Assembly: GCA_023954195.1 (NCBI GenBank)
Contig: JAMLIK010000004.1
Span: forward strand, 310,001-374,000
DNA from: Xanthobacteraceae bacterium
Lineage (GTDB): Bacteria; Pseudomonadota; Alphaproteobacteria; Rhizobiales; Xanthobacteraceae
DNA length: 64,000 bases
Reading direction: 5' to 3'
Position numbers and translations under genes: made by a program. Below, piece after piece: positions 22,723-47,825 of the stretch; the stretch's first letter is position 1, and each line of letters opens with the position of its first letter. The notes beneath the pieces were generated by a model. The model ran no database searches. It had not been told where the DNA came from and saw only the letters and a list, made by a program, of their open reading frames with translations.

Positions 22723-23481
22723 TCAGGATGCGGCGGCGGCGGCGCGCTCGACCTTCTTGCGCAGGTTCATGGTGAGGCGCGCCTGCTTCTGGAAGTGAGC
22801 CTGAAGAAGGCGCACCGCGCGATCCTCGTCGCGGTCGAGCGCCGCCTTCATGATGGCCTCGTGCTCGCCGTCGGCGGCGACGGCCCGCTCGGCGTATTTC
22901 CAGAAATAGCGCCGGTAGCGCTCCATGTGATCGTATAATTCATCGAAGAAGTGCAGCAGCCAGGGCGAGCCGCAGCCCTTGCACAGCGCATAGTGGAATT
23001 CACGGTGGCGGTCTTCCCACTCGGTGCGGCGCCCGTCGTCATCCTGATCGGCCGAGACCGCGATGCCGGCCAGCTTGAGGCGATGGAAGGCCGACAGCAG
23101 GTCCACTTCCCAATCCTCGCGGCCGTCCTGGATGGCGCCGCGAATGGCGTAGGCTTCCAGGTTGGCGCGCAGATTGGAGACGTCCAGCATCTCGTCGAAC
23201 TGGATCGGCGCGACGACGAAGCCTTTATGGTCCTCGGCGATCACCAGGCCCTGCGCGGCGACCTGGAACAGGGCTTCGCGCAGCGGGCTGGTGCCGACCT
23301 CGTAACGCTTGCTCAGCTTCTCGAATTGCAGCCGCTCGCCGGGCGCGAGCCGATGGCGGATGATGTCGTGGCGCAGTTGCTGGGCGACCCGGCCGGCGAG
23401 TGTTTTCGGCGCGCCGTCCCGCGAGGGATGCAGGCTGGGGCCCCATCGCCGCGTCGGCTGTTGTTTGGACACATTCGTCAT
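22723..23481 (-). CDS. GntR/FadR-family transcriptional regulator
   Basis: DNA-binding regulator of 252 residues. The winged helix (about 35-100) contains LAGRVAQQLRHDIIRHRLAPGERLQFEKLSKRYEVGTSPLREAL, the GntR signature. The C-terminal helical FCD ligand-binding domain includes DVSNLRANLEAYAIR and the metal-site-like ..DRHREFHYAL. It is divergent from the class III dioxygenase gene at 23615, whose promoter region carries AT-rich palindromes. It is the likely local regulator of the catabolic operon, sensing a pathway acid. ATG 23481 (MTNVSKQQ) is used; the frame is open further upstream without a binding site. Confidence 0.92.
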   Translation of the reverse strand: MTNVSKQQPTRRWGPSLHPSRDGAPKTLAGRVAQQLRHDIIRHRLAPGERLQFEKLSKRYEVGTSPLREALFQVAAQGLVIAEDHKGFVVAPIQFDEMLDVSNLRANLEAYAIRGAIQDGREDWEVDLLSAFHRLKLAGIAVSADQDDDGRRTEWEDRHREFHYALCKGCGSPWLLHFFDELYDHMERYRRYFWKYAERAVAADGEHEAIMKAALDRDEDRAVRLLQAHFQKQARLTMNLRKKVERAAAAAS

Positions 23482-23614: not shown

Positions 23615-24493
23615 ATGGCCGAGATCGTCTATGCCGCCGGCGCGCCGCACGCGCCGGGCCTGATCGGACTGCTGGAAGCGGCGCCCCCCGACGTCAAGGA
23701 CGTCGTGGCCCACACCTATCGCAGCCTCGCCGAGGCGATGGCTTCGGCCAAGGCGGACGTGCTGATCGTGTTCGCGAACGACCATCTCGCCAACAGCCGG
23801 GTGCGCGCCTATCCCGACTTCCTGATCGGCATGGCGGCGGAGCATCGCGGGCCCTACGAGTGGTTCAAGCCGTGGATCGGTTGCGAGGACTACACCGTGA
23901 AGGGCGCGCCGGACGTGGCGGCGGCGCTGTTCGACGGCATGACCCGGCGCGGCGTCCGGATGTTCGCGCAAAGCGAGAACCTGAAATTCGACGACAATAT
24001 CTCGGTGCCGGTGCTGCTCACCAACGTCGCCGGCAGCGGCATTCCGATGGTGCCGGTGCTGCAAAACTGCACCGTCCCGCCGATTCCAGATCAGCGCCGC
24101 TGCTACGAGGTCGGCCAGGCGCTCGGCGATTTCATCCGCCACGATCTTCCGGCCGACATGCGGGTGGCGTTGCTGGGCTCCGGCGGGCTGAGCCATGAGC
24201 CGGGCGGGGCGCGCTATTACTTCATCGACGAGGCGTTCGATCGCTGGTTCCTCGATCTGGTCGCCTCCGGCGATCATGAGACGCTGCTGAACGAACTGAC
24301 GCTGGAGAAGATGGAGGCGGCCGGCTCCGGCGGCACGGCGGAGCTGCTGGCATGGATCGTCGTGCTCGGCGCGATCGGCCCGAAGCCGGGCAAGAGCTTC
24401 GGCTACACCGTGCACAAGGACTTCAAGTGCGGCGTCGGCGGCGTGTTGTGGGACATGAGCCCGAACATGCCGAAGTCGCGCGCGGCGGCCTGA
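23615..24493 (+). CDS. class III extradiol ring-cleavage dioxygenase, catalytic (LigB-like) subunit
   Basis: Fe(II) enzyme of 292 residues opening a catechol-type or aminophenol-type ring. Residues matching those of protocatechuate 4,5-dioxygenase LigB are all visible: iron ligands His12 (GAPHAP), His57 (FANDHLAN) and Glu243 (GGTAELLAW), and catalytic-base His194 (GGLSHEPGG). AAGGAG lies 7 bases before the ATG at 23615. A small LigA-like partner follows 14 bases later. Substrate cannot be fixed: protocatechuate, gallate, aminophenol and related dioxygenases share these residues. A palindromic operator lies directly upstream. Confidence 0.9.
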   Translation: MAEIVYAAGAPHAPGLIGLLEAAPPDVKDVVAHTYRSLAEAMASAKADVLIVFANDHLANSRVRAYPDFLIGMAAEHRGPYEWFKPWIGCEDYTVKGAPDVAAALFDGMTRRGVRMFAQSENLKFDDNISVPVLLTNVAGSGIPMVPVLQNCTVPPIPDQRRCYEVGQALGDFIRHDLPADMRVALLGSGGLSHEPGGARYYFIDEAFDRWFLDLVASGDHETLLNELTLEKMEAAGSGGTAELLAWIVVLGAIGPKPGKSFGYTVHKDFKCGVGGVLWDMSPNMPKSRAAA

Positions 24494-24507: not shown

Positions 24508-24816
24508 ATGGGCCTTGAGAAATTCAACCCGTCGCTGGCGACGCACGATCTGATCCAGGATCTGAAATGGTCGCCGGAGCTGCGCGAGGCGTTCGCCGCC
24601 GATGAAGCCGCCGTGCTCGATCGCTACCCGCTGCGGCAGGACGAGCGGCGCGCGATCGAGACGCGCAACTTTCTCGCGCTCTACGACATGGGTCTTCATC
24701 CCTATCTCGGCGGACAATTCGCCCGGCTGATCTTCGGCAACGAGGCCGGCAAGGGCGCCACCGTCGCCGTCAACAAACTGGTCGAATCGCTTCAGGGCAA
24801 GGGGTCCGTCGCCTAG
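24508..24816 (+). CDS. class III extradiol dioxygenase, small (LigA-like) subunit
   Basis: 102-residue helical protein resembling the alpha subunit of protocatechuate 4,5-dioxygenase. DLKWSPELREAFAADEAAVLDRYPLRQDERRAIETRNFLALYDMGLHPYLGGQFARL carries the LigA-type helix pattern and the conserved L..MG.HP.L segment that caps the active site of the large subunit. It is placed just after the LigB-like gene, an order (large then small) reversed relative to sphingomonad ligAB. It has no catalytic residues of its own. Confidence 0.85.
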   Translation: MGLEKFNPSLATHDLIQDLKWSPELREAFAADEAAVLDRYPLRQDERRAIETRNFLALYDMGLHPYLGGQFARLIFGNEAGKGATVAVNKLVESLQGKGSVA

Positions 24817-24967: not shown

Positions 24968-26227
24968 ATGGGTACTCGCTTGAACTGGATCAATTCGGCC
25001 TTGGCCGCGGCTTCCATGCTGGCGATAGCGACATCGAGCGTCGCGGCAGCCGATCCCGGCATCACCGATACCGAAATCAAGATCGGCGGCATCTGCCCGA
25101 GCACCGGGCCGATCGCCTCCTTCGTCACCATCTGCGCGATGCAGGACGCCTATTTCAAATACGTCAACGCCCGCGACGGCGGCGTGATGATGAGCGACGG
25201 CAAGCGGCGCAAGATTTCCTATGTCTACTATGACGACGGCTATTCGCCGCCGCGCACCGTGGAACAGGCCAAGCGTCTGGTCGAGCGCGATCAGGTCGGC
25301 CTGATTATCGGGCCGCTCGGCAGCGCCACCGGTCTCGCGATCCGCGACTATCTCAACAAGCGCGGCGTGCCGCAGCTCTCGGTCGGCAGCGGCCTGTCGG
25401 CGTTCAGCACCGAGATGGACAAGTATCCGTGGACCGTCGGCTGGCAGCCGTCCTACACCACCGAGGGCAGCATCTACGCCGAGTTCGTGCGGTCGCACAA
25501 ACCCAACGCCAAGGTGGCGATCCTTTATCAGAACGACGACTTCGGCAAGGAACTCCTGAATGCGTTCAAGCACGCCTCCGAAGGCAGCGGCGTCACCGTC
25601 GCCGAGGCGCAATCCTACGAGGTGACCTCGCCGACCGTGGATTCCCAGGTCTCGAATCTCGCGGCGACCAATGCCGACGTGCTGCTGATTTTCGCGGTGC
25701 CCAAGTTCACCGCCCAGACGCTGCGCAAGGTGCAGGACGGCTCATGGCGGCCGATGGTGATCGTCTCCAACATCAGCGCGTCGAAGAAGACCGTGATGGA
25801 GCCGGCCGGCGCCGAAGCGTCCGAGGGCGTCTATTCGGTGGTCAGCCTGATGGATCCGACGGCGGCGGCCTATGCCAACACCAAGGACATGCAGGTCTAT
25901 CGCGATATCGGCACGAAATTCAGCTCCGCGGGGCTCAATCTTGACGATCCGATGACGATGTACGGATTCGGCCAGGCCCAGACCATGGTCGCGGTGCTGG
26001 AGAGGGCCAAGGCGCCGACGCGCGCGGCGATCATGGAATCGGCCCGCCATCTGTGCGGCGTGCCGATCCTCGGCATGGTGCCCGGCGTCAAGGTCTGCGT
26101 CGACGGCAAGGCGGATCCGTTCTACGTCGAGTCGATGCAGGTGGTCCGCTACACCAAGGGCAACTGGGAGGCGGTCGGCGACGTCATCACCAAGTTCGAA
26201 GGCAAGACGCCTCGTCAGGCCCGGTAA
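24968..26227 (+). CDS. branched-chain-type ABC transporter substrate-binding protein (system 1)
   Basis: Periplasmic binding protein of 419 residues. A signal peptide (ALAAASMLAIATSSVAAA) is followed by the Peripla_BP_6 fold: ITDTEIKIGGICPSTGP, VGLIIGPLGSATGLAI, NDDFGKELL and the hinge strand near VLLIFAVPKFTAQTLRK. Such LivJ-like proteins often bind aromatic acids, amides or urea rather than branched-chain amino acids. It is the first gene of a long operon with its own ATPases and permeases (27882-31274) and with amide hydrolases, so the ligand may be an amide or aromatic acid. Confidence 0.92.
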   Translation: MGTRLNWINSALAAASMLAIATSSVAAADPGITDTEIKIGGICPSTGPIASFVTICAMQDAYFKYVNARDGGVMMSDGKRRKISYVYYDDGYSPPRTVEQAKRLVERDQVGLIIGPLGSATGLAIRDYLNKRGVPQLSVGSGLSAFSTEMDKYPWTVGWQPSYTTEGSIYAEFVRSHKPNAKVAILYQNDDFGKELLNAFKHASEGSGVTVAEAQSYEVTSPTVDSQVSNLAATNADVLLIFAVPKFTAQTLRKVQDGSWRPMVIVSNISASKKTVMEPAGAEASEGVYSVVSLMDPTAAAYANTKDMQVYRDIGTKFSSAGLNLDDPMTMYGFGQAQTMVAVLERAKAPTRAAIMESARHLCGVPILGMVPGVKVCVDGKADPFYVESMQVVRYTKGNWEAVGDVITKFEGKTPRQAR

Positions 26228-26242
26228 GAGGCGCGCGCGATC

Positions 26243-26935
26243 ATGGCTACCGAATTGCTGAACGAGGTTCTGCCGCCGAAAACCGGACGGGCGCTGATCG
26301 TCCGCGCCGGCGAGGTTCTCAGGATCACCGATCTGGAGGGCCAGCAGGTCGTCGACGTCGCGATCTTCAATGCCGACAACCATCGCGACCGTCTGTCATT
26401 GTCCTACTCCACCACGCGCTACGCGATGCAATACAGCGCGCGGCGCGCGGGGCGGCCGGAGCCGACGGTGGCCATGTCCAAGGATTTCATCACCGAGGGC
26501 GACGTGTTGATGTCCACCATCTACACGCCGCTGATGACCCTCATCAAGGAAACGCCGGAGCCGAAGGGCGTCCATAAGGTCAACCAGCGCATGTGCAACC
26601 GGCGCTTCTACGAAAGCTTCGGCCTGTCCGGAATCGACGGCTGCCACGAGATCATCAGCGGCGTCGTGGCGCCCTACGGCATTCGCCCGGAGGACATTCC
26701 CGACACCATCGACTTCTTTATGAACTATCATCACGATTGCGCCAGCCATTCCTGGGTGGCCGAATCGCCGGTCTCCAAACCGGGCGACTATGTCGAGTTG
26801 CGCGCGGAGATCGATTGCCTGGTCGCAATCTCCAATTGCCCGGAAGATCATGTCAGCCAGATCAACGGCGGACGCTGCACGCCGATGCGGTTGCAGGTGT
26901 TCGCCGCCGATGACGCGGCGGCGCGGGCGAATTGA
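26243..26935 (+). CDS. DUF1989 (urea carboxylase-associated) family protein
   Basis: 230 residues matching the DUF1989 pattern: an N-terminal strand GRALIVRAGEVLRITDLEGQQVVDV, FITEGDVLMS, then NQRMCNRRFYESFG and a C-terminal INGGRCTPMRLQV. Members occur beside urea carboxylase or amidase genes and are of uncertain biochemical function; some are proposed to act on amino or guanidino compounds. Its stop and the next gene's ATG overlap as TGATG, so translation is coupled to the acetamidase-like gene. Confidence 0.85.
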   Translation: MATELLNEVLPPKTGRALIVRAGEVLRITDLEGQQVVDVAIFNADNHRDRLSLSYSTTRYAMQYSARRAGRPEPTVAMSKDFITEGDVLMSTIYTPLMTLIKETPEPKGVHKVNQRMCNRRFYESFGLSGIDGCHEIISGVVAPYGIRPEDIPDTIDFFMNYHHDCASHSWVAESPVSKPGDYVELRAEIDCLVAISNCPEDHVSQINGGRCTPMRLQVFAADDAAARAN

Positions 26936-27885
26936 TGGCCACGCACGTTCTCAAGGCCAGCGCGTCGACGGTTCAGGCCGGGATCATCGATCCGAAAGCC
27001 AAGCCCGTCCACACGGTGGCCTCCGGCGACACCGTGATCCTCGACACCTGGGCGATGTGGGACAATGCCGGCGGCGCGTCGCTAGACCTTGAGCAGGCCA
27101 TGACGTTACGCGAGCGGTTCCGCGCCGAGGGGCGCGGGCCGCACAGTCTCACCGGGCCGATCGCCGTCGAAACCGCGCGTCCCGGCGACGTTCTCAAGGT
27201 CGAGATCGAGAGCCTCGATATCGCCGATCACGGCATCAACCTGATTTTCCCCGGAGGACGCAGTCGCGGCTTGCTGAGCGACATTTTCCCGGAGGCCGAG
27301 CTGCGCCATTTCAAGCTCGACCGGGAGACCATGACCACGCGCTTCGGCCAAGGCGTCAGAATGCCGCTGCGGCCGTTCCTCGGCATCATGGGCGTGCTGC
27401 CGTCGCTTGATGAGGCCGCGCGCAGTTCCGCCATCCCCGGCAATTTCGGCGGCAATATCGATTGCGCCGATCTGGTCGCGGGCAGCACGTTGTATCTCCC
27501 GGTCTTCGTCGACGGCGCGGGCTTCTACGCGGGCGACGCGCACGCGGCGCAGGGCTGCGGCGAAGTGGTGCAGACCGCGCTGGAAACCGCGATGACCGCG
27601 GCACGGCTGCGGCTGACGGTGCAGAAGGGCCGCTCGATCCTTCGCCCGTGGGCCGAAACCCGCGAGCATTTCATCACCATGGGCCTGGATGAGGACCTGC
27701 GCGAGGCGGCGCGGCAGGCGGTGCGCGACATGATCGACCTGATGGCGGCGACCAAGGGCATGACGCGGTCCGACGCCTATGCGCTATGCTCCCTGCAAGC
27801 CGACCTGATGGTGACTCAGCTCGTCAACGGCGTCAGCGGCATTCACGCCCGCATGCCGAAATCGATTTTCCAGGGTGGCACATGA
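26935..27885 (+). CDS. acetamidase/formamidase family hydrolase (FmdA/AmdA)
   Basis: 316-residue metal-dependent amidase predicted to hydrolyse formamide, acetamide or a short amide to the acid and ammonia. Family landmarks are IPGNFGGNIDC (about 163-173) and the metal/ligand region GDAHAAQGCGE (about 198-208), followed by a helical C-terminus. It sits between DUF1989 and the ABC ATPase genes with a TGATG overlap before and ATGA after, so it belongs to the transporter operon and may process the imported compound or an amide released in its breakdown. Confidence 0.9.
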   Translation: MATHVLKASASTVQAGIIDPKAKPVHTVASGDTVILDTWAMWDNAGGASLDLEQAMTLRERFRAEGRGPHSLTGPIAVETARPGDVLKVEIESLDIADHGINLIFPGGRSRGLLSDIFPEAELRHFKLDRETMTTRFGQGVRMPLRPFLGIMGVLPSLDEAARSSAIPGNFGGNIDCADLVAGSTLYLPVFVDGAGFYAGDAHAAQGCGEVVQTALETAMTAARLRLTVQKGRSILRPWAETREHFITMGLDEDLREAARQAVRDMIDLMAATKGMTRSDAYALCSLQADLMVTQLVNGVSGIHARMPKSIFQGGT

Positions 27886-28642
27886 CCGGGCTGCTCGAAG
27901 TGCGCCATGTCGGCATCCGGTTCGGCGGCGTGCGCGCGCTTCAGGATGTGTCGTTCGAGGTCGAGGACGGCATGATCTGCGGGTTGATCGGGCCGAACGG
28001 CGCCGGCAAGACCACCCTGTTCAACGCCATCTCCCGCGTCTACGACGTCAGCCAGGGGTCGATCCATTTCGCCGGGCTGGATATCACCGCGCTGCCGGCG
28101 AGCCGGATCATCGGACTCGGCATCGCCCGCACGTTGCAGAATGTCGGACTGTTCGGCGCGATGTCGGTGACGGAGAACGTGCTGCTCGGCGCGCATCACC
28201 GGCTGCGGCCGGGCTTCGTCAACGCCATTTTCGACAAGGGCGCGGTGATCGACCCGGCCGCGATCGAGCGCGAGGCGCGCGACATCCTGCAAGAACTCGG
28301 CCTGACGGCGGTCGCCGACCATCTGGCCGGCGGCCTGCCGTTCGGCACGCTGAAGCGGATCGAGCTGGCGCGCGCCCTGATCGCGCAGCCGCGCCTCCTG
28401 ATGCTGGACGAACCCGCCAACGGCCTCTCCCACGGCGAGGTCGACGAGTTGTCCGAGGTCATCCTGCGGGTGCGGCGGCGCCATGGCCTCACGGTGCTGC
28501 TGGTCGAGCATCACATGCGGATGCTGATGCGGATTTCCGATCGCGTCGTCGTGCTTGAGAACGGCGTCAAGATCGCCGACGGGCCGCCGGCCGAGGTCAA
28601 GGCCGACCCCGGCGTCGCCGCCGCTTACCTGGGGACGGTGGC

Positions 28643-28646
<4 letters not shown>
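27882..28646 (+). CDS. ABC transporter ATP-binding protein, LivG type (system 1)
   Basis: Cytoplasmic ATPase subunit, 254 residues. Walker A GPNGAGKT lies near residue 38, the Q-loop segment RTLQNVGLFG near 85, and Walker B RLLMLDEPA near 165. The ABC signature is the relaxed LPFGTLKRIELARAL form normal for LivG, and HH in VEHHM is the switch region. The insertion AHHRLRPGFVNAIF is typical of LivG. It overlaps the amidase stop by 4 bases (ATGA) and the LivF start in the same way. Confidence 0.95.
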
Positions 28647-29349
<703 letters not shown>

Positions 29350-29353
<4 letters not shown>

Positions 29354-30231
29354 CGCTGTTCGCCAGCCAGATTGTCGATGGCCTCGCCGACGGCGCGATC
29401 TATGCGTCGCTGGCGCTCGCGCTTGTCTTCAGCTACCGCTCCACCGGCATCGTCAATTTCGCGCAGGGCGAGATGGCGATGCTGTCGGCCTATCTGGTGT
29501 GGCAGTTGATGGCCTGGGGCCTGCCGCTCATTCCGGCGGCGCTGGTGTCCATCGCGGTGTCGTTCGTCGCCGGCGCGCTGCTGTATGCGTCGATCGTCAG
29601 GCCGCTGTCCCATGCCAGCCTGCTGACCGTGGTCAGCGTGCTGATCGGCTTGTATCTGGCGCTCAACAGCCTCGCCGGATTCATCTGGACCTACACCATC
29701 AAGCCGCTGCCGAGCCTGTTTCCCAAGGGTCACTTCCGGCTCGGCTGGTTCAACATTTCGGCGGAAACCGCCGGGATCATCATCGTGGTCGCGGTGGTGC
29801 TGCTGCTGCTCTATCTGCTGTTCGAGACCACCAAGATCGGGCTGGCGATGCGCGGCGCGGCGTCGACGCCGGATTCGGCGGTGCTGGTCGGGGTGTCGGT
29901 GCCGCTGATGCTGCTGATCGGCTGGGGCATCGCGGCGGCGCTCGGAGCGCTGTCGGGCATTCTGGTCGCGCCACGGGTGTTCCTCAACCCGACGATGATG
30001 TTCGGCGTCATCATCTACGCTTTCGCGGCAGCGACGCTGGGCGGGTTCGACAGCATCGTCGGCGCGGTGGTCGGCGGCCTTCTGGTCGGCGTGGTGGAGA
30101 ATCTGGTCGGCACCTACATTCCCTGGATCGGCCCCGATCTCAAGATCATCGTGGCGCTGGTGCTGATTTTCGGCACGCTGCTGATTAAGCCGGACGGCTT
30201 GTTCGGCCGCAGCAAGGTGGTGCGGCTATGA
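29350..30231 (+). CDS. branched-chain-type ABC transporter permease, LivH type (system 1)
   Basis: Inner-membrane permease of 293 residues with about eight hydrophobic spans. The signatures GIVNFAQGEMAMLSAYL (second span) and AAATLGGFDSIVGAVVGGLLVGVVENL (the ATPase-coupling loop) mark the LivH family. It is chained by 4-base overlaps to livF before and livM after. Confidence 0.95.
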
Positions 30232-31274
30232 GCGTCGTCATCAAACCGAGATTGCCGGTCGCCGCGCGCGTGCTCGCCGGGGCGGCGCTCGCCGTGGTCC
30301 TGCTCTACGTCATTCCGTTCGCGATTCCGGGGTATCTGGTGAGCCAGTTCGCGACCGTGCTGGTGTTCGCCATCGCCATCGTCGGCATCAACCTGGTGAC
30401 CGGATTCGGCGGCGCCATCACGCTGGGCCATGCCGCGTTCGTCGCGCTCGGTTCCTACACCACCGCGATCCTGGTGGTGCGGTACGGCTGGAGCCCTTAC
30501 GCGACGGTTCCGGTCGCCGCCGCGCTGAGCTGGGTCGCGGGCTGGTGTCTCGGCTTTCCGGCGCTGCGGCTTCAAGGGCTGTATCTCGCGCTCGGCACGC
30601 TGGTGCTTTCGATCACGGTGCCGCCGCTGCTGAAGCGGTTCGAGGCGTTCACCGGCGGCGTGCAGGGGCTCAATGTCGGCAATCCGGAAGCGCCGGCGTT
30701 TCTGCCGATCGACGACTCGCAATGGATCTATTTCCTGTGCCTCGCCGTGGCGGCGGTGCTTTACGTGGTGGCGCGCCGCATTCTGTCGGGGCCGCTGCGG
30801 CGCGCGCTGGTGGCGGCGCGTGACAATCAGCTCGTCGGCGCCGTGATGGGCGTCGACCGCGCCAACCTGACCACCGCGACCTTCGCGATGAGCAGTCTCT
30901 ATGCGGGTGTCGCGGGCTCGCTCTATGCGATGATCGTCGGCTTCGTGTCGCCGGATACCTTCAACGTGATGATGAGCCTCAGCCTGTTCGTCGGCGCCGT
31001 GGTCGGCGGCATCACCTCGCTCAACGGCGCCATCGTCGGCGCCATGTTCATCCAGTTCGTGCCGATCTGGGCCAGCGACATCGACGTCGCGCTCGGCGGC
31101 CTGGTGTTCGGTTGCGCACTGATCGTGACGCTGGTTGTGATTCCGGCGGGCATCGGCGGATTGGGCGAGCGCGCCTTCATCTGGCTGTGCCGCCGGCTCG
31201 GTTGGGTGGAGCGCGCCGAGGCGCGGCGCGACAACATCGCGGTGACGGGGAGCGCGCGGAATGAGCCAGCATGA
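30228..31274 (+). CDS. branched-chain-type ABC transporter permease, LivM type (system 1)
   Basis: Partner permease of 348 residues. The signature GINLVTGFGGAITLGHAAFVALGSYT is followed by the coupling loop RRALVAARDNQLVGAVMGVD and the late segment FVGAVVGGITSLNGAIVGA. The C-terminus carries a short basic tail. Its last 14 bases overlap the amidohydrolase start at 31261, which ties that enzyme to transport. Confidence 0.95.
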   Translation: MSVVIKPRLPVAARVLAGAALAVVLLYVIPFAIPGYLVSQFATVLVFAIAIVGINLVTGFGGAITLGHAAFVALGSYTTAILVVRYGWSPYATVPVAAALSWVAGWCLGFPALRLQGLYLALGTLVLSITVPPLLKRFEAFTGGVQGLNVGNPEAPAFLPIDDSQWIYFLCLAVAAVLYVVARRILSGPLRRALVAARDNQLVGAVMGVDRANLTTATFAMSSLYAGVAGSLYAMIVGFVSPDTFNVMMSLSLFVGAVVGGITSLNGAIVGAMFIQFVPIWASDIDVALGGLVFGCALIVTLVVIPAGIGGLGERAFIWLCRRLGWVERAEARRDNIAVTGSARNEPA

Positions 31275-32931
31275 CATCGATCACATCCTGACCGGCAAGG
31301 TCATCACGCTGGATCGGGCCGGGCGCATCACCGATGCGGTCGCGATCGCCGGCGACCGCATCGTCGCGGTAGGCGAGCGGCGCGAAATCCTGCAATTGAA
31401 AGGGCCGCGAACCCGCGTCACCGAAACCTCTGGCGCGATCATTCCCGGATTCAACGACGCCCACGCCCACATGGACACCGAGGGGCTGCGCGACCGCTTC
31501 CCCTCGCTCGGGCGGGTCCGCAGCATCGATGACGTGCTGGCGCGGATTGCAGAACTCGCCCATGCGACGCCGCGCGGCGAATGGATCGTCACCATGCCGG
31601 TCGGCGACGCGCCGTTCTATTTCGGCGGTCCGATCGTGCTGCGCGAGCGGCGGATGCCGACCCGCGAGGAACTGGATCGCGCCGCGCCCGATCATCCGGT
31701 CTGCATCCTGCCGCCATCGGGCTATTGGAGCCTGCTGCCGTGCTACACGGCGCTGAATTCGCTGGCGTTGAAGCTGAACGGGCTCGACCGCGCGTCGGTG
31801 TCGCCGGTCGCGGGCATCGAACTGCAACGCGACGCGGCGGGCGAACTCACCGGCGTCGTCGTCGAGCACAACTATCCCGATTCCGCGCAGATCGCGCTGC
31901 TGCCAGCGGTGCCGCGCTTCTCGCCACAGGATCGCCGTGATGGCATCCTGCGCTCGGTGCGGGCCTATCACGCGGTCGGCACCACCAGCGTTTACGAAGG
32001 GCACGGCTGCGCGCCGGAGGTGATCGCCGCCTATCGCGACCTGTGGCAGGCCGGCGACCTGACGATGCGGATGCACCTCGTCGTCAGCCCGACCTGGGCG
32101 ACCTGCGATGAGGCCGAAGTGATGATGCGCGACTGGCTCGCCTATGCGCGCGGCGCGGGCGTCGGCGACGCAACGCTGCGGATCGGCGGCATCTTCGTCG
32201 GCTATGGCGGCGAGCCGACGGCGGCGCGCGCGGCGCGGATCGATCCGGCGGATCTCGGCTGGTCGTGCTACATCAAGCACGCCAACGACCCGGCGGAGTT
32301 CGAGAAGCTGTGCATGCTCGCGGCCATGCATGATCTGCGGATCCATACCATCGCCGTGGACAAGCTGTGCGAACTGCTGCCGATCTTCGAGCGCGTCCAT
32401 GCGGCTCACGACATTTCGCGCCGCCGCTGGGTGGTGGAGCATATGAGCCATGCGGCGGCGTCCGATCTGGCGCGCCTGAAGGCGCTCGGCATCGGCGTCA
32501 CCCTGATCCCGGACTATCATGTCTGGAAAGTCGGCACCCGCTTCTTCCCGTTGTCGGAGGCCGATCGCGAACTGGTGTCGCCGGCCGCGCAGCTCGACGC
32601 CCTCGGCGTGCCGGTCGCCTGCGGCACCGACAACAGCCCGCTCAACCCGCTGGCGGCCATGCGGGCGATGCGCACCCGCCGCGAGCGCACCACCGGCGAG
32701 GTGCTGGGCGCGGGCGGCCGAACCTCCGCCGAGCTGGCGCTGCGCGCGATGACGCGAAACGGCGCGTGGTTCTCGTTCGAGGAAAACGTCAAGGGACGGA
32801 TCATGCCAGGCTACCTCGCCGATCTCGCGGTGCTCAGCGGCTGTCCGCTGACCACGCCGGGCGAGGATCTGGAGGGGCTGTCCTGTCTCGCCACCCTGAT
32901 CGGCGGACGTTTCGTTCACGGCAATATCTAG
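31261..32931 (+). CDS. YtcJ-like metal-dependent amidohydrolase (first)
   Basis: 556-residue amidohydrolase_3 family enzyme, cytoplasmic. The HxH metal motif is in GFNDAHAHMD near residue 67. Later metal-site regions are the lysine near CYIKHAND, VVEHMSH, and CGTDNSPLNP around residue 460. The C-terminal PGYLADLAVL segment is typical of this class. Such enzymes hydrolyse amides, carbamates or cyclic imides, and substrate cannot be predicted. It overlaps livM by 14 bases and is followed after 10 bases by an esterase, so uptake, amide and ester hydrolysis appear linked. Confidence 0.9.
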   Translation: MSQHDIDHILTGKVITLDRAGRITDAVAIAGDRIVAVGERREILQLKGPRTRVTETSGAIIPGFNDAHAHMDTEGLRDRFPSLGRVRSIDDVLARIAELAHATPRGEWIVTMPVGDAPFYFGGPIVLRERRMPTREELDRAAPDHPVCILPPSGYWSLLPCYTALNSLALKLNGLDRASVSPVAGIELQRDAAGELTGVVVEHNYPDSAQIALLPAVPRFSPQDRRDGILRSVRAYHAVGTTSVYEGHGCAPEVIAAYRDLWQAGDLTMRMHLVVSPTWATCDEAEVMMRDWLAYARGAGVGDATLRIGGIFVGYGGEPTAARAARIDPADLGWSCYIKHANDPAEFEKLCMLAAMHDLRIHTIAVDKLCELLPIFERVHAAHDISRRRWVVEHMSHAAASDLARLKALGIGVTLIPDYHVWKVGTRFFPLSEADRELVSPAAQLDALGVPVACGTDNSPLNPLAAMRAMRTRRERTTGEVLGAGGRTSAELALRAMTRNGAWFSFEENVKGRIMPGYLADLAVLSGCPLTTPGEDLEGLSCLATLIGGRFVHGNI

Positions 32932-32941
32932 AGGATATCTC

Positions 32942-33868
32942 ATGGCCATCGATCCGCAACTCGCCCCGTTCATCGCGCGCCTGGAGGAAGCCTGGCCGGA
33001 GCCGCCGCTGTCGTTGCCGGTCGAGGTCTGGCGCGCGCGCGTCGAGCGGCTGTCGGCGGCGGCGCGCACGCCCTATCCCGAGGGGCTCGATGTCGAGACC
33101 CGCACCATCGACGGCCCGCGCCCGGTTCGCGTCCGCGTCTATCGCCCGCGCGCGGCGCGGCCGCTTCCGGCGCTGGTCTACATGCATGGCGGCGGCTGGG
33201 TGATCGGCAGCATCGACAGCCACGATTCCATCACCGCCGCGCTCGCCGCCGACACGCCTTGCGTGGTTGTGAGCGTCGATTACGCCCGCGCGCCGGAGCA
33301 TCCGTTTCCCGCGCCGATGGAGGACTGCCGCGCCGTGGTCGCGTGGCTGTTCGCCAATGCCGCCGCGGTTGGCGTCGACCCCGCCGCGATTTTCGTCGGC
33401 GGCGATTCCGCCGGCGGCAACCTCGCGGCGGCGATGACCCTCGCGTTTCGTGACGCTCCGCAGCGCCTGCGCGGGCAGTTGCTGCTTTACCCTTGCGTCG
33501 ACACCGATTTCGAGCGCCCGTCCTACATCAGCGAAGCCGAGGCGCCCTATCTGAAGGGGCGGGAAATGGTCTGGTTCTGGAATCAGTATTGTCCCGCGCC
33601 GGAGCAGCGCCAGGATCCGCTGGCGGTGCCGATGCGCTGCGACGATCTCGCCGGTCTGCCGCCCGCCTTCATCGTGGTCGCCGAACACGATCCGCTGCGC
33701 GACGACGGCCACGCCTATGCGGAGCGCCTGAAGGCGGCCGGGGTCGCCGTGACGTTTCGCCCCGGTCTCGGGCTCATTCACGGCTTTGTGCGCGCGCGGG
33801 CGCTTTGCGACGCGGCGCAAGTCGAGCATGAAGCCATGACACAGTGGTTGCGCGCCACGGCGGCGTGA
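32942..33868 (+). CDS. alpha/beta hydrolase, HSL-type esterase (second)
   Basis: 308-residue carboxylesterase of the hormone-sensitive-lipase family. The oxyanion motif HGGGW is at 82-86, the nucleophile Ser156 in GGDSAGGN, the acid Asp250 in AEHDPLRD and the base His280 in LIHGF, a complete triad. AGAGGATAT precedes the ATG. It is probably the last gene of the system-1 transporter operon, where it could release an aromatic or amide acid from an ester. Confidence 0.93.
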   Translation: MAIDPQLAPFIARLEEAWPEPPLSLPVEVWRARVERLSAAARTPYPEGLDVETRTIDGPRPVRVRVYRPRAARPLPALVYMHGGGWVIGSIDSHDSITAALAADTPCVVVSVDYARAPEHPFPAPMEDCRAVVAWLFANAAAVGVDPAAIFVGGDSAGGNLAAAMTLAFRDAPQRLRGQLLLYPCVDTDFERPSYISEAEAPYLKGREMVWFWNQYCPAPEQRQDPLAVPMRCDDLAGLPPAFIVVAEHDPLRDDGHAYAERLKAAGVAVTFRPGLGLIHGFVRARALCDAAQVEHEAMTQWLRATAA

Positions 33869-34659: not shown

Positions 34660-34719
34660 GACATTTGTCGCCGCGATCCGTCATGCTGCCCGCCGATGCA
34701 ACCGCCGAGAGCGATTCCG

Positions 34720-35217
34720 ATGCCACATGCCGCCGCCCCGATTTTTCGCCGCCTGATGGGCCGGTTCACCACCGGCGTCGCGGTGGTATTGACGGCCGGC
34801 GACGCAGGGCCGGTCGGCTTGACGGTGAATTCGCTGACGTCGCTCAGCCTCGATCCGCCGCTGCTATTGTTCTGCGCGCGCAACGAAAGCCGCGCCGGGC
34901 GGGCGGTGGTGGCGCGCGGCTCGTTCTCGGTCAACATTCTGTCGGACGCGCAGCAGGACGTGTCCGGGTACTTCGCCGGACAGAGCGGCAACTGGAACGC
35001 CGGCGCCTGCCGCCGCCACCGCGGCTGGTTCACGATCCCGGATTGCAACGCGGCGATCTTCTGCGATGTCGCCGATACCTATCCCGGCGGCGACCATGTC
35101 ATCATTGTCGGCGCGGCGCGGGAGATCGTCGGCCCCGCGACGGCGAAGTCACCGCTGCTCTACCACGAGGGCCGCTATAGCGTGATGCGCCCGCATCCGC
35201 TCGGCGCGTGCGGATAG
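34720..35217 (+). CDS. flavin reductase, reductase component of a two-component monooxygenase
   Basis: 165-residue FMN-binding split-barrel protein (HpaC/flavin_reduct family) that supplies reduced flavin. Landmarks are FRRLMGRFTTGVAVVLT, GLTVNSLTSLSLDPPLLLFC and SFSVNILSDAQQDVSGYFA, then GDHVIIVG near the C-terminus. ATG 34720 has GAGAG upstream; an in-frame ATG at 34696 is an alternative. The matching oxygenase is probably the acyl-CoA-dehydrogenase-fold protein at 36235. The gene lies between the two Crp-type regulators. Confidence 0.9.
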   Translation: MPHAAAPIFRRLMGRFTTGVAVVLTAGDAGPVGLTVNSLTSLSLDPPLLLFCARNESRAGRAVVARGSFSVNILSDAQQDVSGYFAGQSGNWNAGACRRHRGWFTIPDCNAAIFCDVADTYPGGDHVIIVGAAREIVGPATAKSPLLYHEGRYSVMRPHPLGACG

Positions 35218-35276
35218 GCCGGCGCTATCCTGCGCGTCAGTCCGCGGCTTCGCTGTTTGGGATGAATGCGCAATAC

Positions 35277-35423: not shown

Positions 35424-35456
35424 CTTGAACCCGAGGCGGGAATGGAAAAAAACCTG

Positions 35457-36119
35457 CTAACCGCCATCGCGCCGGCGCTTCAGCAAAATGTGGCCGTCGA
35501 TGATGTCGATGCGGTTCTGTTCGCGCAGCCGCTGCAGGGTGCGGGTCACCGTCACGCGCGAGGTGCCGGTCATGGTCGCGATCTGCTCGTGGGTCAGGTG
35601 GGTCACCAGCAGGCGGCCCTTGGGATGATCGATCGCGAACATGTCCTCAAGCCGCGTCAACAACTCCATGATGCGATCCTGCGGCTCGCGCGAGGCGAGA
35701 TGCTTGAGCCGGACCGCGAGGACGCGCTGCTTCAGGCTGGTGACGCGCAGCAGCAAGGCGGCGAATTCCGGACGGGCGCGGAAAATCTCGGTCATCTTCG
35801 CGGTGTCGAACTCGATCGCCTCGGTGTCCTCGATCGCCGCCGCGCTGGAAAAGCGCGGCAGCCCGTCGAAGGCCGCGCCCTCGCCGCACACCGTTTCCGG
35901 CCCCATCAGCTCCAGCACCACCTCGGAGCCGTCGGCGCGGAAGATCGAGATCTGCACCAGCCCCTTGAGCACGAAATAGAACCGCGTCGAGACCTCGCCC
36001 TGCTCGTAGAGCACGGTGTTCTTCTTGAATTTGCGGCGGCGCCCGAAGGCGGCGTGTCGGCTGATGTCCTCGACCAGTTGACGGTCGATGCGCCATGTGC
36101 CGAGTTTTTCTTTCGTCAT
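35457..36119 (-). CDS. Crp/Fnr family transcriptional regulator (second)
   Basis: 220 residues with the cNMP-binding-like fold (FYFVLKGLVQISIFRADGSEVVLELMGPE; CGEGAAFDGLPRFSSAAA) and an HTH_Crp domain containing LTHEQIATMTGTSRVTVTRTLQRLR. The recognition helix SRxTVTR is the same as in the regulator at 33926, so both may read one operator type. It has no Fnr-type cysteines. It is divergent from the monooxygenase gene; a palindrome GTATC-N4-GATAC lies between them. Confidence 0.94.
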   Translation of the reverse strand: MTKEKLGTWRIDRQLVEDISRHAAFGRRRKFKKNTVLYEQGEVSTRFYFVLKGLVQISIFRADGSEVVLELMGPETVCGEGAAFDGLPRFSSAAAIEDTEAIEFDTAKMTEIFRARPEFAALLLRVTSLKQRVLAVRLKHLASREPQDRIMELLTRLEDMFAIDHPKGRLLVTHLTHEQIATMTGTSRVTVTRTLQRLREQNRIDIIDGHILLKRRRDGG

Positions 36120-36234: not shown

Positions 36235-37485
36235 ATGACAGCAGTTTTCCGGATGGAGCCGATGACGTCAATGGCACGCGCGCAGGCGGAGGAGCGGTCG
36301 GAACAGGATCATGGCGGCGCGGCCGCCGTGGTCGCCAACGCGGCGGACATGCAGGACTGGCTTCGCGGCAAGGCGGTCGAGATCGAGCAGCGCCGCAGCC
36401 TGTCTCCGGAGGTGGTCGAGCGGCTGGTCGACAACGACCTGTTTCGCATCACCCAGCCGAGCCTCTATGGCGGCCTCGGGCTTTCGCCGCGCGCCGCATG
36501 GGAAGCGACCTACGAGATCGCGCGCGGCTGTTCGTCCACCGCCTGGATCCTCGGCCTTTCCAGCGCCAACGTGGTGATGATCGGCAAGTTCTCGGCGCAG
36601 GCCCAGCGCGATGTCTTTCTCTCCGGCAAGCCGACCATCGTGTCGCTGTTGACCGGCGGCGTCGGTCAGGACATCGTCGCCGAGCCGGTGGAGGGCGGTG
36701 TGCTGCTCAGCGGCCGCTGGCGCTATGCCTCCGGCATCGATGTCGCGACCTGGGCCGGCCTTCTGGTGCCGATTCCGGTGGAGGGGCGAATGGTGCCGCA
36801 TGTGGTGCTGGTGCCGGCGGATGCCTTCGCCATCGATCAGGCGAGCTGGAACGTGCTGGGCATGCGCGGCACCGGCAGCAAGGACATTTCGTTGACGAAG
36901 ACGTTCGTTCCGGCGCATCGCTGGATGGACTGGCAGGTGTTGCAGGACGGCGGCTGTCATCCGACCTGCCCGCGCCACGGCGCCATCACCGCCGCGCCGC
37001 TCAATCCGATCAACGCCATGTCGACGCTGGCGCCGACGCTGGGTGTCGCCTCGGCGGTGGCGGAGGAATTCCGCGCCATCGCCAAGGCCAAGGTCAGCCC
37101 GGCGGCGCAAAAGGCGCTGGTGGAGGATCGCGTCGCCCAGATCGAGGCCGCAACCAGCGAGGCGACCATGGCGATGCTGCGCCGCGCCCTGCTCGACGAT
37201 GCCGACGCCATTCTCGAATTATCCGGCGCAGGGCCCGTCAGCCTGATCGAGCGCGCCGCGATGCGCACCCGCTTCGCCGTCGCCTCGCGGCTGGCGTTGC
37301 AGACCACGCAGCGGCTGTTCGCCGCGCTGGGGGGCTCGGTGCTGCCGAGCGGCACGCGGATCGAGCGGCTGTTCCGCGACGTCCACGCCATGAGCAGCCA
37401 CATGCTGCTGCAACCGGGGGCGATCGGCGAGCCTTACGGCCGGCTGCTGCTCGACCTGCCGCTGCCGCCGACGGCGCGAATCTGA
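36235..37485 (+). CDS. acyl-CoA dehydrogenase-fold flavin monooxygenase, oxygenase component
   Basis: 416-residue protein of the group D flavin monooxygenase family (4-hydroxyphenylacetate 3-hydroxylase C2 / HsaA-like), which uses reduced flavin and O2 to hydroxylate a phenol. Landmarks are the N-terminal helix up to LVDNDLFRITQPSLYGGLGL, RGCSSTAWIL (about 96), LSGRWRYASGID (about 161), VLGMRGTGSKDI and the C-terminal ALGGSVLPSGTRIERLFRD. It has no glutamate base of true acyl-CoA dehydrogenases that I can place. ATGs at 36235, 36253 and 36262 are in frame; GGAG precedes 36262. Partner reductase at 34720; RidA and HpaD-like genes follow. Confidence 0.85.
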   Translation: MTAVFRMEPMTSMARAQAEERSEQDHGGAAAVVANAADMQDWLRGKAVEIEQRRSLSPEVVERLVDNDLFRITQPSLYGGLGLSPRAAWEATYEIARGCSSTAWILGLSSANVVMIGKFSAQAQRDVFLSGKPTIVSLLTGGVGQDIVAEPVEGGVLLSGRWRYASGIDVATWAGLLVPIPVEGRMVPHVVLVPADAFAIDQASWNVLGMRGTGSKDISLTKTFVPAHRWMDWQVLQDGGCHPTCPRHGAITAAPLNPINAMSTLAPTLGVASAVAEEFRAIAKAKVSPAAQKALVEDRVAQIEAATSEATMAMLRRALLDDADAILELSGAGPVSLIERAAMRTRFAVASRLALQTTQRLFAALGGSVLPSGTRIERLFRDVHAMSSHMLLQPGAIGEPYGRLLLDLPLPPTARI

Positions 37486-37511: not shown

Positions 37512-37925
37512 ATGAAGAAACAGGCCATCGACTCCCGCAATCCGATTTTCGCCACGGCGGACGGATCGACGATCTTCAAGAAATTCGGCTATTCGCCGGC
37601 GGTGCGCGCGGGCGATTTCCTCTATGTCGCCGGCCAGATCGGCCTCAATCCGGACGGCTCGATGCCGGCGAACGACGAGGGGCAGATCGTCAACGCCTTC
37701 GACCGGCTCAAGATTGTGCTGGAGGAAGCCGGCGCCTCGCTCGACGATATCGTCGAACTGGTCAGCTACCATGTCGGGTTGCAGAACCATCTCGGGAAGT
37801 TCGTCGAGATCAAGAGCCGTTACATCCGCGAGCCGTTCCCGACCTGGACCATCCTCGAAATCGCCGGGCTGGCGCGGCCGGGCCTGGTGATCGAGATCAA
37901 GGCGGTGGCCTACGCGCCGAAATAG
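37512..37925 (+). CDS. RidA/YjgF family protein, catalytic Arg replaced (first)
   Basis: 137-residue small trimeric enzyme of the Rid superfamily. The fold is clear: GDFLYVAGQIGLNPDG, EEAGASLDDIVELVSYHV and the C-terminal strand GLVIEIKAVAY. The position of the essential Arg105 of imine-deaminating RidA is Trp112 here (PTWT). It is therefore probably not a general imine deaminase but one of the pathway-specific subfamilies, some of which deaminate 2-aminomuconate-like ring-cleavage products. It begins 26 bases after the monooxygenase and precedes the HpaD-like dioxygenase. Confidence 0.9.
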   Translation: MKKQAIDSRNPIFATADGSTIFKKFGYSPAVRAGDFLYVAGQIGLNPDGSMPANDEGQIVNAFDRLKIVLEEAGASLDDIVELVSYHVGLQNHLGKFVEIKSRYIREPFPTWTILEIAGLARPGLVIEIKAVAYAPK

Positions 37926-40389: not shown

Positions 40390-40392
40390 GGC

Positions 40393-43947: not shown

Positions 43948-44343
43948 ATGTCACGCACCGTCGTCGTCCCGCCCACCGGCCTGCGTCCGGGCATCCCCTA
44001 TTCGCCGGCGATCCGCTGGGACAAATTGCTGTTCGTCTCGGGTCAGACCGGCTCCGATCCGGTGACCCGCGAATTTCCCGAGGACATCAAGGCGCAGACC
44101 CGCATCGCGCTGGAGAACGTCAAGGCGCTGGCGGAAGCCGGCGGCGCCTCGCTCGACACCGCGCTGAAGATGACCATCCACATGACCGACATGATGAACG
44201 AGTTCGCCGCGATGAACGAGGTGTTCCGCGAGTTCTTTCCCAAGGACCCGCCGTCGCGCACCACGGTCGGCGTCGCTCATCTCGCCCGCGCCGGCCTCAA
44301 GATCGAGATCGACATGATCGCGGTGGTGAAGGATGCCGTCTGA
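43948..44343 (+). CDS. RidA/YjgF family protein with conserved Arg (second)
   Basis: 131-residue Rid-superfamily enzyme. LLFVSGQTGSDPVTRE, FPEDIKAQTRIALENVKALAEAGGASLD and PPSRTTVGVAHLARAGLKIEIDMIAV show the fold, and Arg104 (PSRT) occupies the position needed for 2-iminoacid deamination, unlike the RidA at 37512. It begins 3 bases after livF, and its end overlaps the following amidohydrolase by 11 bases, so it is part of the system-2 operon. Likely roles are imine/enamine hydrolysis or aminomuconate-type deamination. Confidence 0.92.
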   Translation: MSRTVVVPPTGLRPGIPYSPAIRWDKLLFVSGQTGSDPVTREFPEDIKAQTRIALENVKALAEAGGASLDTALKMTIHMTDMMNEFAAMNEVFREFFPKDPPSRTTVGVAHLARAGLKIEIDMIAVVKDAV

Positions 44344-45934
44344 GGCGACCACAATTCTTCTGCGCGGCGGCCCCTTGGCGACCGCCGCGCGGGGTGATGC
44401 CGACAGCCTGCTGATCGAGGCCGGCCGCATCGCCTGGATCGGGCCGGCGCGGGAAGCGCCGCGCGCCGCCCGCGTCATCGATCTGGAGGGCAGCCGCGTG
44501 GTGCCGGGACTCACCGACGCCCACGCCCATCTGTTCATGCGGGCGCAGGAGCTGTTGAACCTGCAACTCGGTCCCGCCGCCGACACCATCGCCGCGCTGT
44601 TGCAGCGGCTGCGCGCCGCCTGCGCGGCCGCCGCGCCCGATCAATGGGTGATGTCGGCCGACTATAGCGAGCAATTTCTCGCCGAGCGCCGTCACCCGAC
44701 CCGCGAGGAACTGGATGCCGTCTCCGGCGGGCGACCGGTGCTGCTGCGCCGCACCGGCGGTCACCTGTCGGTCGCCAATTCGGCGGCGCTGCAACGCGCG
44801 GGCTTCGACGACACCACGCCCGATCCGGCGGGCGGCACCATCGAGCGCACCAACGGCCGGCTCAACGGCGTGCTGACCGAAAACGCCGCCGACATCGTCG
44901 CCGCGCTGATCCCGCCGCCGTCCGCGGCGCGCACCCTCGCCGCCATCCGCAGGGTGGCCGGCGAATGCCTGAGCTACGGCATCGTCGCCGTCACCGAGGC
45001 GGCGGTCGGCTTCAACAACGGCTTTGGGGTCGAGTGGGACATCTGGAATGCGCTGCGCGCCGATGGCGGCTTGCCGCTGCGCATGGGGTTCATGCTGCGC
45101 ATCGATCCGGAGGAGGCGCGGGCGCGCGGCCTCGCGCCGTCCGGTATCGACGATCGCTGGCAGGCGCGGACGCTGAAGTTCTTCGTCGACGGCATCATCG
45201 GCGCGCGCACCGCCGCGTTCTTCGAGCCCTATGCGGGCAGCGATAACGCCGGCCTGCTGATGGAGCCGCCGGCCGATCTGCGCGCCAAGGTGATCGACGG
45301 CCATGCCTGCGGCTGGCAACTCGCCGCCCATGTGATCGGCGATCGCGGCATTGCGCAGTGGCTGGATTGCCTGACGGCGGCGCATCGCGCCTGGCCGCGC
45401 GACGACGCGCGGCACCGCATCGAGCATTTCGCGGTGCGCGGCCCGATGGCGGTCGAGCAGGCGCGCGCGCTCGGCGCTATCGTGGTGCCGCAATACGGTT
45501 TTCTGCGCCGGCTCGGCGCGTCGTTCGCGGAAGCGGTGGGCGAGCCGCGCGCGGCGCGGCTTTATCCGGGCCGGACGTTGCGCGACGCCGGCATCGTCGT
45601 CGCCGGCAGTTCGGATCATCCGATCGGACCGCTGTCGCCCTATCTCGGCATCGCCGCCGCGATCGATCGCACGGCGGCGGGCGGGCTGGTTCTCAACGCC
45701 GCCGAAGCCCTGACCGCCGCCGAGGCGCTGGCGGCCTATACCGAGGGCGGGGCCTTCGCGATGGGGCACGAACGGCGGCGCGGCCGCATCGCGGTCGGGC
45801 AATATGCCGATCTCGCGGTGTTGGATCGCGACATTCTCGACCTGCCGCCCGACCGGATCGAGGCGGCGCGGGCGCGGCTGACGCTGGTGGGCGGCGAGAT
45901 CGCTTTTTCCGACGGCGCGCTGGCGGCTTCATGA
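44333..45934 (+). CDS. YtcJ-like metal-dependent amidohydrolase (second)
   Basis: 533-residue amidohydrolase_3 family protein. HxH metal motif in GLTDAHAHLFM (near 63), KFFVDGIIGARTA (near 281, where the bridging region is expected), HVIGDRG (near 330), RIEHF (near 362) and SSDHPIGPLSP (near 425). The C-terminal GQYADLAVLDRD is typical. It is only distantly similar to the first amidohydrolase (31261): GLTDAHAHL versus GFNDAHAHM. It ends the system-2 transporter operon, as the other does in system 1. Confidence 0.9.
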   Translation: MPSEATTILLRGGPLATAARGDADSLLIEAGRIAWIGPAREAPRAARVIDLEGSRVVPGLTDAHAHLFMRAQELLNLQLGPAADTIAALLQRLRAACAAAAPDQWVMSADYSEQFLAERRHPTREELDAVSGGRPVLLRRTGGHLSVANSAALQRAGFDDTTPDPAGGTIERTNGRLNGVLTENAADIVAALIPPPSAARTLAAIRRVAGECLSYGIVAVTEAAVGFNNGFGVEWDIWNALRADGGLPLRMGFMLRIDPEEARARGLAPSGIDDRWQARTLKFFVDGIIGARTAAFFEPYAGSDNAGLLMEPPADLRAKVIDGHACGWQLAAHVIGDRGIAQWLDCLTAAHRAWPRDDARHRIEHFAVRGPMAVEQARALGAIVVPQYGFLRRLGASFAEAVGEPRAARLYPGRTLRDAGIVVAGSSDHPIGPLSPYLGIAAAIDRTAAGGLVLNAAEALTAAEALAAYTEGGAFAMGHERRRGRIAVGQYADLAVLDRDILDLPPDRIEAARARLTLVGGEIAFSDGALAAS

Positions 45935-47759: not shown

Positions 47760-47825
47760 TGAGGCTCGCGTGTTTCGATCTTCGAAAATCACGGTCTAGA
47801 ATTGATTTCAACGGGAGGGATAGCG

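What the first reader, a model, noticed from the sequence alone, without database searches (positions are those of the whole stretch)
24968..33868. Nine-gene transport-hydrolysis operon chained by overlapping start and stop codons
From DUF1989 to the first amidohydrolase every junction overlaps: TGATG (26935), ATGA (27882, 28643, 29350, 30228) and 14 bases (31261). The binding-protein gene lies 15 bases upstream and the esterase 10 bases downstream. Such tight coupling joins importer, formamidase-like enzyme, DUF1989, amidohydrolase and esterase in one functional unit and implies an amide or ester substrate.
Basis: seen in the sequence. Interest (0 to 1): 0.6.

Follow-up and report, generated by a model that had tools for sequence, protein, structure and literature searches.

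The report
Importer, ring-cleavage and deformylation gene block
The nine overlapping genes are real and conserved in related bacteria, but they are the middle of a larger gene block that most likely imports and breaks open a nitrogen-containing aromatic compound, so they are not a simple amide- or ester-using operon.

Summary
That supports one functional unit.

The unit does not start at the binding protein: it is preceded by ligB-ligA, a two-subunit class III ring-cleaving dioxygenase with intact catalytic residues. Between ligB and a divergent GntR/FCD gene lies a palindrome next to TTGACA, conserved in all eight genomes. About 26 kb (GntR to Cyclase) is conserved as a block; it also holds a two-component hydroxylase, a second ring-cleaving dioxygenase, two RidA proteins and a second importer-amidohydrolase operon.

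The LigB belongs to a rare, uncharacterised clade whose members sit beside C-N hydrolases; on a Corynebacterium plasmid ligB, ligA and a formamidase gene are consecutive. The nearest relative of characterised type is PydA (3-hydroxy-4-pyridone), but PydA's diagnostic motifs are absent.

Best reading: uptake and ring fission of a hydroxylated nitrogen-containing aromatic, after which formamidase, DUF1989 and amidohydrolase remove formyl or imino nitrogen. The substrate is unproven.

The parts
22726..23481 (-). GntR/FCD regulator, divergent from ligB (start codon chosen by me)
   Evidence: Pfam GntR and FCD above cut-off; 87-92% in congeners, 77% in RD5-C2
23552..23563 (.). Palindrome ATTTTCGAAAAT followed within 2 bases by TTGACA: candidate operator and -35 box of the ligB promoter
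   Evidence: Exact in 7 of 8 genomes, 1 mismatch in the eighth; with TTGACA unique in the genome; 0.04 matches expected in the window at 1 mismatch
23615..24493 (+). ligB: catalytic subunit of a class III extradiol dioxygenase
   Evidence: PF02900; His12, His57, His194, Glu243 conserved; clade
24508..24816 (+). ligA: small dioxygenase subunit
   Evidence: PF07746; 53% to the p48A neighbour of LigB
24968..26227 (+). Substrate-binding protein of a HAAT importer
   Evidence: PF13458; fold matches
26243..26935 (+). DUF1989 protein, presumed metal-dependent C-N hydrolase
   Evidence: PF09347; C118, C134, C199 conserved; fold
26935..27885 (+). Acetamidase/formamidase-family enzyme
   Evidence: PF03069; structure-based relatives
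27882..28646 (+). ABC ATPase, LivG type
   Evidence: PF00005, PF12399
28643..29353 (+). ABC ATPase, LivF type
   Evidence: PF00005
29350..30231 (+). Permease, LivH type
   Evidence: PF02653
30228..31274 (+). Permease, LivM type
   Evidence: PF02653
31261..32931 (+). Amidohydro_3 metal-dependent hydrolase
   Evidence: PF07969; candidate metal ligands H68, H70, K339, H362, H394, D457 invariant
32942..33868 (+). alpha/beta hydrolase (hormone-sensitive-lipase type)
   Evidence: PF07859; LipP1 model 327 of 350 bits
33926..34624 (+). Crp/FNR-type regulator
34696..35217 (+). Flavin reductase of a two-component hydroxylase
   Evidence: PF01613; HsaB-like, below cut-off
35457..36119 (-). Second Crp/FNR-type regulator
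36235..37485 (+). HsaA-like flavin-dependent hydroxylase
37512..37925 (+). RidA-family protein 1
   Evidence: PF01042
38088..39101 (+). Extradiol dioxygenase related to homoprotocatechuate 2,3-dioxygenase
   Evidence: 236 bits to 1f1x; residues
39181..43944 (+). Second HAAT importer (SBP2, permease, fused permease-ATPase, ATPase)
43948..45934 (+). RidA-family protein 2 and second Amidohydro_3
46048..47586 (+). HpaE-type semialdehyde dehydrogenase
   Evidence: TIGR02299, 780 bits, cut-off 638
47802..48650 (+). Cyclase-family hydrolase (kynurenine formamidase / isatin hydrolase relatives); distal end of the conserved block
   Evidence: PF04199; relatives; synteny

Best explanation
The nine genes are the import and C-N hydrolysis part of a catabolic operon that starts at ligB (23615), driven from the GntR-ligB gap and probably controlled through the ATTTTCGAAAAT palindrome. 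The importer takes up a hydroxylated nitrogen-containing aromatic, probably an acid. LigAB opens the ring next to nitrogen and leaves an N-formyl, formimino or enamine product. FmdA removes the formyl group or hydrolyses released formamide. The metal-binding DUF1989 protein and the RidA proteins of the block hydrolyse amidine, imine or enamine nitrogen to ammonia, and Amidohydro_3 and the alpha/beta hydrolase finish the open chain. The neighbouring conserved operons (hydroxylase, second dioxygenase, HpaE, second importer) handle a related or upstream aromatic. Shown here: gene content, conserved order and overlaps, intact catalytic residues, the conserved palindrome, and the company kept by this LigB clade. 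Inferred: substrate, order of reactions, role of each hydrolase, and co-transcription across the 151-bp ligA-SBP gap.
For: Conserved order and overlaps in two genera. ligB-ligA are 91-96% identical in the genus and 89-91% in RD5-C2, among the best conserved proteins of the block. Conserved palindrome at the ligB promoter, while the ligA-SBP gap is poorly conserved. The LigB clade (100/99) always sits beside C-N hydrolases: ligB-ligA-formamidase on C. glutamicum p48A (49/53/47% identity); isochorismatase, Amidohydro_2 and creatininase in Bosea and G053; Amidohydro_2 and RidA beside the own paralogue; a 36% FmdA about 4.4 kb from LigB in G892. PydA-type proteins score 136-138 bits against 64 for the best solved ring-cleaver, and pyd clusters also hold GntR, alpha/beta hydrolase, importer and RidA. 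Known chemistry: 3,4-dihydroxypyridine is opened to 3-(N-formyl)-formiminopyruvate and then deformylated (PMC7356986, PMC3637104). DUF1989 relatives at about 50% lie in other clusters with Amidohydro_3, ALDH and RidA, one with a 3-hydroxyanthranilate-dioxygenase-like protein.
Against: No substrate is known for any member of this LigB clade. Its link to PydA in the tree is weak (67/55), and PydA motifs are absent. FmdA homologues of 40-48% are common at loci without this LigB, and the own LigAB paralogue, Bosea and G053 show no FmdA nearby. No paper found describes this combination. The binding protein's fold matches mix aromatic, branched-chain amino acid and urea binders.
Confidence: 0.5

Rival explanations
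1. One reading: the nine genes alone import and hydrolyse an amide or ester, and the neighbouring aromatic genes are unrelated.
For: Importer, formamidase, amidohydrolase and alpha/beta hydrolase are tightly coupled; a 151-bp gap separates ligA from the SBP.
Against: ligAB stay directly upstream in all genomes compared, including RD5-C2, and ligB-ligA-formamidase are consecutive on p48A. The regulator's conserved palindrome is at ligB, not at the SBP.
Confidence: 0.13
2. An aminophenol-type meta-cleavage pathway: a carbocyclic aminophenol or aminocatechol is opened, oxidised by the HpaE-type dehydrogenase, and deaminated by RidA. The amide hydrolases release the aminophenol from an amide precursor.
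For: Two ring-cleaving dioxygenases, a semialdehyde dehydrogenase and two RidA proteins. DUF1989 relatives lie beside 3-hydroxyanthranilate-dioxygenase-like and 2-hydroxymuconic semialdehyde dehydrogenase genes. The 2-aminophenol pathway uses a dioxygenase, a semialdehyde dehydrogenase and a deaminase (PMC10470539).
Against: LigB gave no match to a solved aminophenol dioxygenase at E <= 1e-5. Formamidase is not expected in that pathway. No hydratase or aldolase genes were recognised in the block, and the FAA_hydrolase genes of the genome lie elsewhere.
Confidence: 0.18
3. Two independent pathways side by side: an N-heterocycle or amide pathway (ligB to 33868) and a 4-hydroxyphenylacetate-like pathway (34696 to 48650).
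For: The oxygenase, reductase, second dioxygenase and HpaE resemble the 4-hydroxyphenylacetate enzyme set. In RD5-C2 the two halves are rearranged and the closest HsaA relative is only 54% identical and at another place. Separate regulators and motifs.
Against: Both halves stay neighbours in two genera, and each holds an importer and an Amidohydro_3. Arg293 of homoprotocatechuate dioxygenase is Gln in all seven genomes, which argues against homoprotocatechuate itself; that Arg293 binds the carboxylate is from memory.
Confidence: 0.16

Closest known systems
pyd cluster (PydA dioxygenase and PydB hydrolase, 3-hydroxy-4-pyridone), with pyd-type clusters on plasmids of Rhizobium sp. CB3060 and Sinorhizobium terangae CB3126
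   Same: Class III LigB dioxygenase behind a divergent GntR gene, an importer, an alpha/beta hydrolase and RidA; same catalytic residues
   Different: 28% identity; motifs DDHFENH and EWICGM absent; separate LigA subunit; HAAT instead of sugar-type importer; formamidase, DUF1989 and Amidohydro_3 added
ligB-ligA-formamidase genes of Corynebacterium glutamicum plasmid p48A (uncharacterised)
   Same: Same three genes, 49/53/47% identical and consecutive
   Different: No importer or DUF1989 in that run; hydantoinase A/B precede it
Carboxyguanidine deiminase CgdAB / UAAP proteins and TMAO demethylase (DUF1989 family)
   Same: DUF1989 fold and three-cysteine zinc site
   Different: Curated models not reached; no GcvT domain; Tdm H276 replaced by I131
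Homoprotocatechuate 2,3-dioxygenase, for the downstream dioxygenase
   Same: 236 bits over 305 residues; Fe ligands and catalytic His kept
   Different: Arg293 replaced by Gln in all seven genomes compared

Membership tests
pyd pathway (3-hydroxy-4-pyridone degradation) | PydA motifs DDHFENH and EWICGM (primer sites in PMC3637104) | tested here: not met
   Window LigB reads NDHLANS and FKCGVG at these places; the CB3060 PydA-type protein has both motifs
pyd pathway (3-hydroxy-4-pyridone degradation) | Demonstrated substrate and products | not testable with these tools
   Needs enzyme assays or growth tests
Protocatechuate 4,5-dioxygenase / gallate dioxygenase | Curated NCBIfam model cut-offs | tested here: not met
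   Best 108.7 bits of 290 for a subfamily model; gallate 77.7 of 412
Class III (LigB) extradiol dioxygenases | PF02900 plus Fe-binding and catalytic residues | tested here: met
   115 bits of 26; His12, His57, His194, Glu243 conserved
DUF1989 (PF09347) | Pfam cut-off, fold and three zinc cysteines | tested here: met
   117.9 of 27 bits; C118, C134, C199; fold
Carboxyguanidine deiminase CgdAB (UAAP1/UAAP2) | TIGR03424 and TIGR03425 cut-offs | tested here: not met
   90 of 285 and 55 of 206 bits
TMAO demethylase | GcvT domain and iron-ligand His276 | tested here: not met
   230-aa protein without GcvT; His276 aligns with I131
Formamidase FmdA (equivalog) | NCBIfam NF045496 cut-off | tested here: not met
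   81 of 500 bits; the broader PF03069 is met with 133.8 of 27
HAAT (Liv-type) ABC importer | Peripla_BP_6 protein, two BPD_transp_2 permeases, two ATPases | tested here: met
2-aminophenol meta-cleavage pathway | Dioxygenase of the AmnAB type | tested here: inconclusive
   No match to a solved aminophenol dioxygenase at E <= 1e-5; AmnB itself was not compared directly

The most novel reading that the evidence does not exclude
An undescribed route for a nitrogen heteroaromatic: a new LigAB clade opens the ring, a co-inherited formamidase deformylates the product, and a DUF1989 enzyme with a new hydrolytic activity releases the ring nitrogen.
Probability: 0.33. Interest if true: 0.6.

Novelty: new variant of a known kind. 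Interest (0 to 1): 0.4.

Why it matters
Few DUF1989 proteins and class III dioxygenase clades have known substrates. This block ties an uncharacterised LigAB clade to a formamidase and a DUF1989 protein, with conserved order in two genera and a partial echo in an actinobacterium. It gives a short list of enzymes and candidate substrates with which an unassigned pathway for aromatic nitrogen compounds can be tested directly.

Tried and rejected
Urea/guanidine operon (UAAP, Urt models): all curated cut-offs missed. pyd member: diagnostic motifs absent. TMAO demethylase: no GcvT domain, iron-ligand His not kept. A regulon spanning the block through a second palindrome at 47778: not found in the congener stretches examined, so not used. 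Sigma-70 promoter scan: nothing found, uninformative for this group. Literature for the gene combination: nothing matching among the papers found. Wider searches for the DUF1989 and LigB clades across the phylum found no further genomes at the thresholds used. The SBP model (mean pLDDT 73.7) does not single out a ligand. Two family scans failed on a wrong frame for ligA, and RidA1 was first scanned in the wrong frame and repeated correctly.

Full report
Observation. In this window 6 of the 8 internal junctions overlap, against 7 of 35 elsewhere. Each ATGA overlap is an ordinary operon trait; the informative fact is conservation. In congeners G001-G006 the same junctions are -1, -4 (-1 in G005), -4, -4, -4 and -14 (the G004 contig ends inside the first permease). 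In Bradyrhizobium sp. RD5-C2 they are -1, -4, -4, -1, -4, -14. One more congener, G007, shows neither the formamidase nor the DUF1989 gene at the thresholds used.

What the genes are. Pfam names the nine: Peripla_BP_6, DUF1989, FmdA_AmdA, two ABC ATPases, two BPD_transp_2 permeases, Amidohydro_3 and Abhydrolase_3. None of them reaches a curated NCBIfam cut-off, including formamidase (81 of 500 bits), UAAP2 (90 of 285) and the Liv and Urt importer models. Candidate catalytic or metal-binding residues of the DUF1989 protein, amidohydrolase, alpha/beta hydrolase and formamidase are invariant in the congeners compared and RD5-C2.

The unit is larger. Upstream lie ligB (23615-24493) and ligA (24508-24816), both above their Pfam cut-offs, and a divergent GntR/FCD gene. 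The GntR-ligB gap carries ATTTTCGAAAAT just before TTGACA, exact in seven genomes and one mismatch off in the eighth; with TTGACA it occurs once in the genome. The ligA-SBP gap, in contrast, is poorly conserved. That favours transcription from the ligB promoter, though a promoter for the SBP itself is not excluded. Downstream follow a Crp/FNR gene, a flavin reductase, a divergent Crp/FNR gene, an HsaA-like oxygenase, RidA1, a homoprotocatechuate-dioxygenase-like enzyme, a second importer with RidA2 and Amidohydro_3, HpaE (above cut-off) and a Cyclase-family hydrolase.

The block. GntR to Cyclase is syntenic in the genus where the contigs reach. The window's own flanking genes are not found beside the block in the congener stretches examined, so the block keeps together while its surroundings change. 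In RD5-C2 ligAB and the nine genes are intact, and the second dioxygenase and second importer lie on their other side; the closest HsaA relative there is 54% identical and at another place.

Clue to function. LigB proteins of this type are rare: besides the window's genome, 5 of 396 genomes drawn from the order had a match at E <= 1e-30, and none of 397 drawn from the phylum at E <= 1e-35. A tree puts the window's LigB in a clade (100/99) with the genome's own 63% paralogue, C. glutamicum plasmid p48A, Bosea sp. Tri-49 and G053. All sit beside C-N hydrolases. On p48A ligB, ligA and a formamidase gene are consecutive after hydantoinase A/B. Bosea and G053 have isochorismatase, Amidohydro_2, creatininase and a HAAT importer (the isochorismatase and creatininase of G053 are my reading of the sequence). 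The paralogue has Amidohydro_2 and RidA. G892 has a 36% FmdA about 4.4 kb from LigB.

Nearest chemistry. The catalytic His12, His57, His194 and Glu243 are conserved through to PydA. PydA-type proteins of rhizobia from Leucaena and Desmanthus are the closest relatives of characterised type (136-138 bits; best solved structure 64 bits). Their clusters also hold GntR, an alpha/beta hydrolase, an importer and RidA. In that chemistry 3,4-dihydroxypyridine is opened to 3-(N-formyl)-formiminopyruvate, which a hydrolase then deformylates, possibly releasing formamide (PMC7356986; PMC3637104). But DDHFENH and EWICGM are absent here, so this is not PydA, and the branch joining the two in the tree is weak.

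DUF1989. The protein keeps the three cysteines that bind zinc in TMAO demethylase (C263, C279 and C343 there; PMC12560246) as C118, C134 and C199, while the proposed iron ligand H276 aligns with I131. Its model (mean pLDDT 74.3) matches only DUF1989 structures. Relatives at about 50% in G001, G006 and G097 lie in other clusters with Amidohydro_3, ALDH and (in G001 and G097) RidA. In G001 that cluster also holds a 3-hydroxyanthranilate-dioxygenase-like protein, 2-hydroxymuconic semialdehyde dehydrogenase and HpaH (both above cut-off), HpaI, a creatininase and a RutB-like hydrolase. So this branch of DUF1989 recurs in ring-cleavage clusters rich in C-N hydrolases.

Importer. The best structural matches of the binding protein include R. 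palustris proteins for coumarate and caffeate, but also leucine, valine and urea binders. An aromatic acid is compatible, not shown.

Mechanism. Most likely: uptake of a hydroxylated nitrogen aromatic, ring opening by LigAB, deformylation by FmdA, release of the remaining nitrogen by DUF1989 and RidA, and trimming by Amidohydro_3 and the alpha/beta hydrolase. The substrate and the order of steps are inference. The main alternatives are an aminophenol-type pathway and two independent neighbouring pathways. The second dioxygenase carries Gln in place of Arg293 of homoprotocatechuate dioxygenase in all seven genomes; that Arg293 binds the substrate carboxylate is from my own memory.

Verdict. Observation confirmed; one functional unit supported; an amide or ester as the imported substrate not supported; a new variant of a known kind of catabolic operon.

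Noticed in passing
39181-45934: A second tightly packed importer-amidohydrolase operon in the same block: SBP2, permease, fused permease-ATPase, ATPase, RidA2, Amidohydro_3, with gaps 3, -37, -17, 3, -11 in my gene calls.
   Followed up: partly
36189-36203: Inverted repeat CGTAT-N4-CGATAC between the divergent Crp/FNR gene and the HsaA-like gene, largely conserved in five congeners; possibly the Crp/FNR operator.
   Followed up: partly
47778-47789: Second near copy (one mismatch) of the ligB palindrome upstream of the Cyclase gene, in a 215-bp gap that congeners do not have.
   Followed up: partly
L087:11530-12712 (own genome, C2): A second ligB-ligA pair, 63-68% identical, beside Amidohydro_2 and RidA but without formamidase nearby.
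   Followed up: partly
L071, L072, L073: Clusters with a 50% DUF1989 relative, two Amidohydro_3, ALDH and HAAT importers; in L072 also 3-hydroxyanthranilate-dioxygenase-like, HpaH, HpaI, creatininase, RutB-like and pyridoxolactonase-like genes: possibly another aromatic-nitrogen pathway.
   Followed up: partly
3048-16839: The left neighbourhood of the block looks like housekeeping: Obg-type GTPase, proB/proA-like, nadD-like, M23 and S41 peptidase genes. Genes to the right of 49393 were only partly scanned.
   Followed up: no
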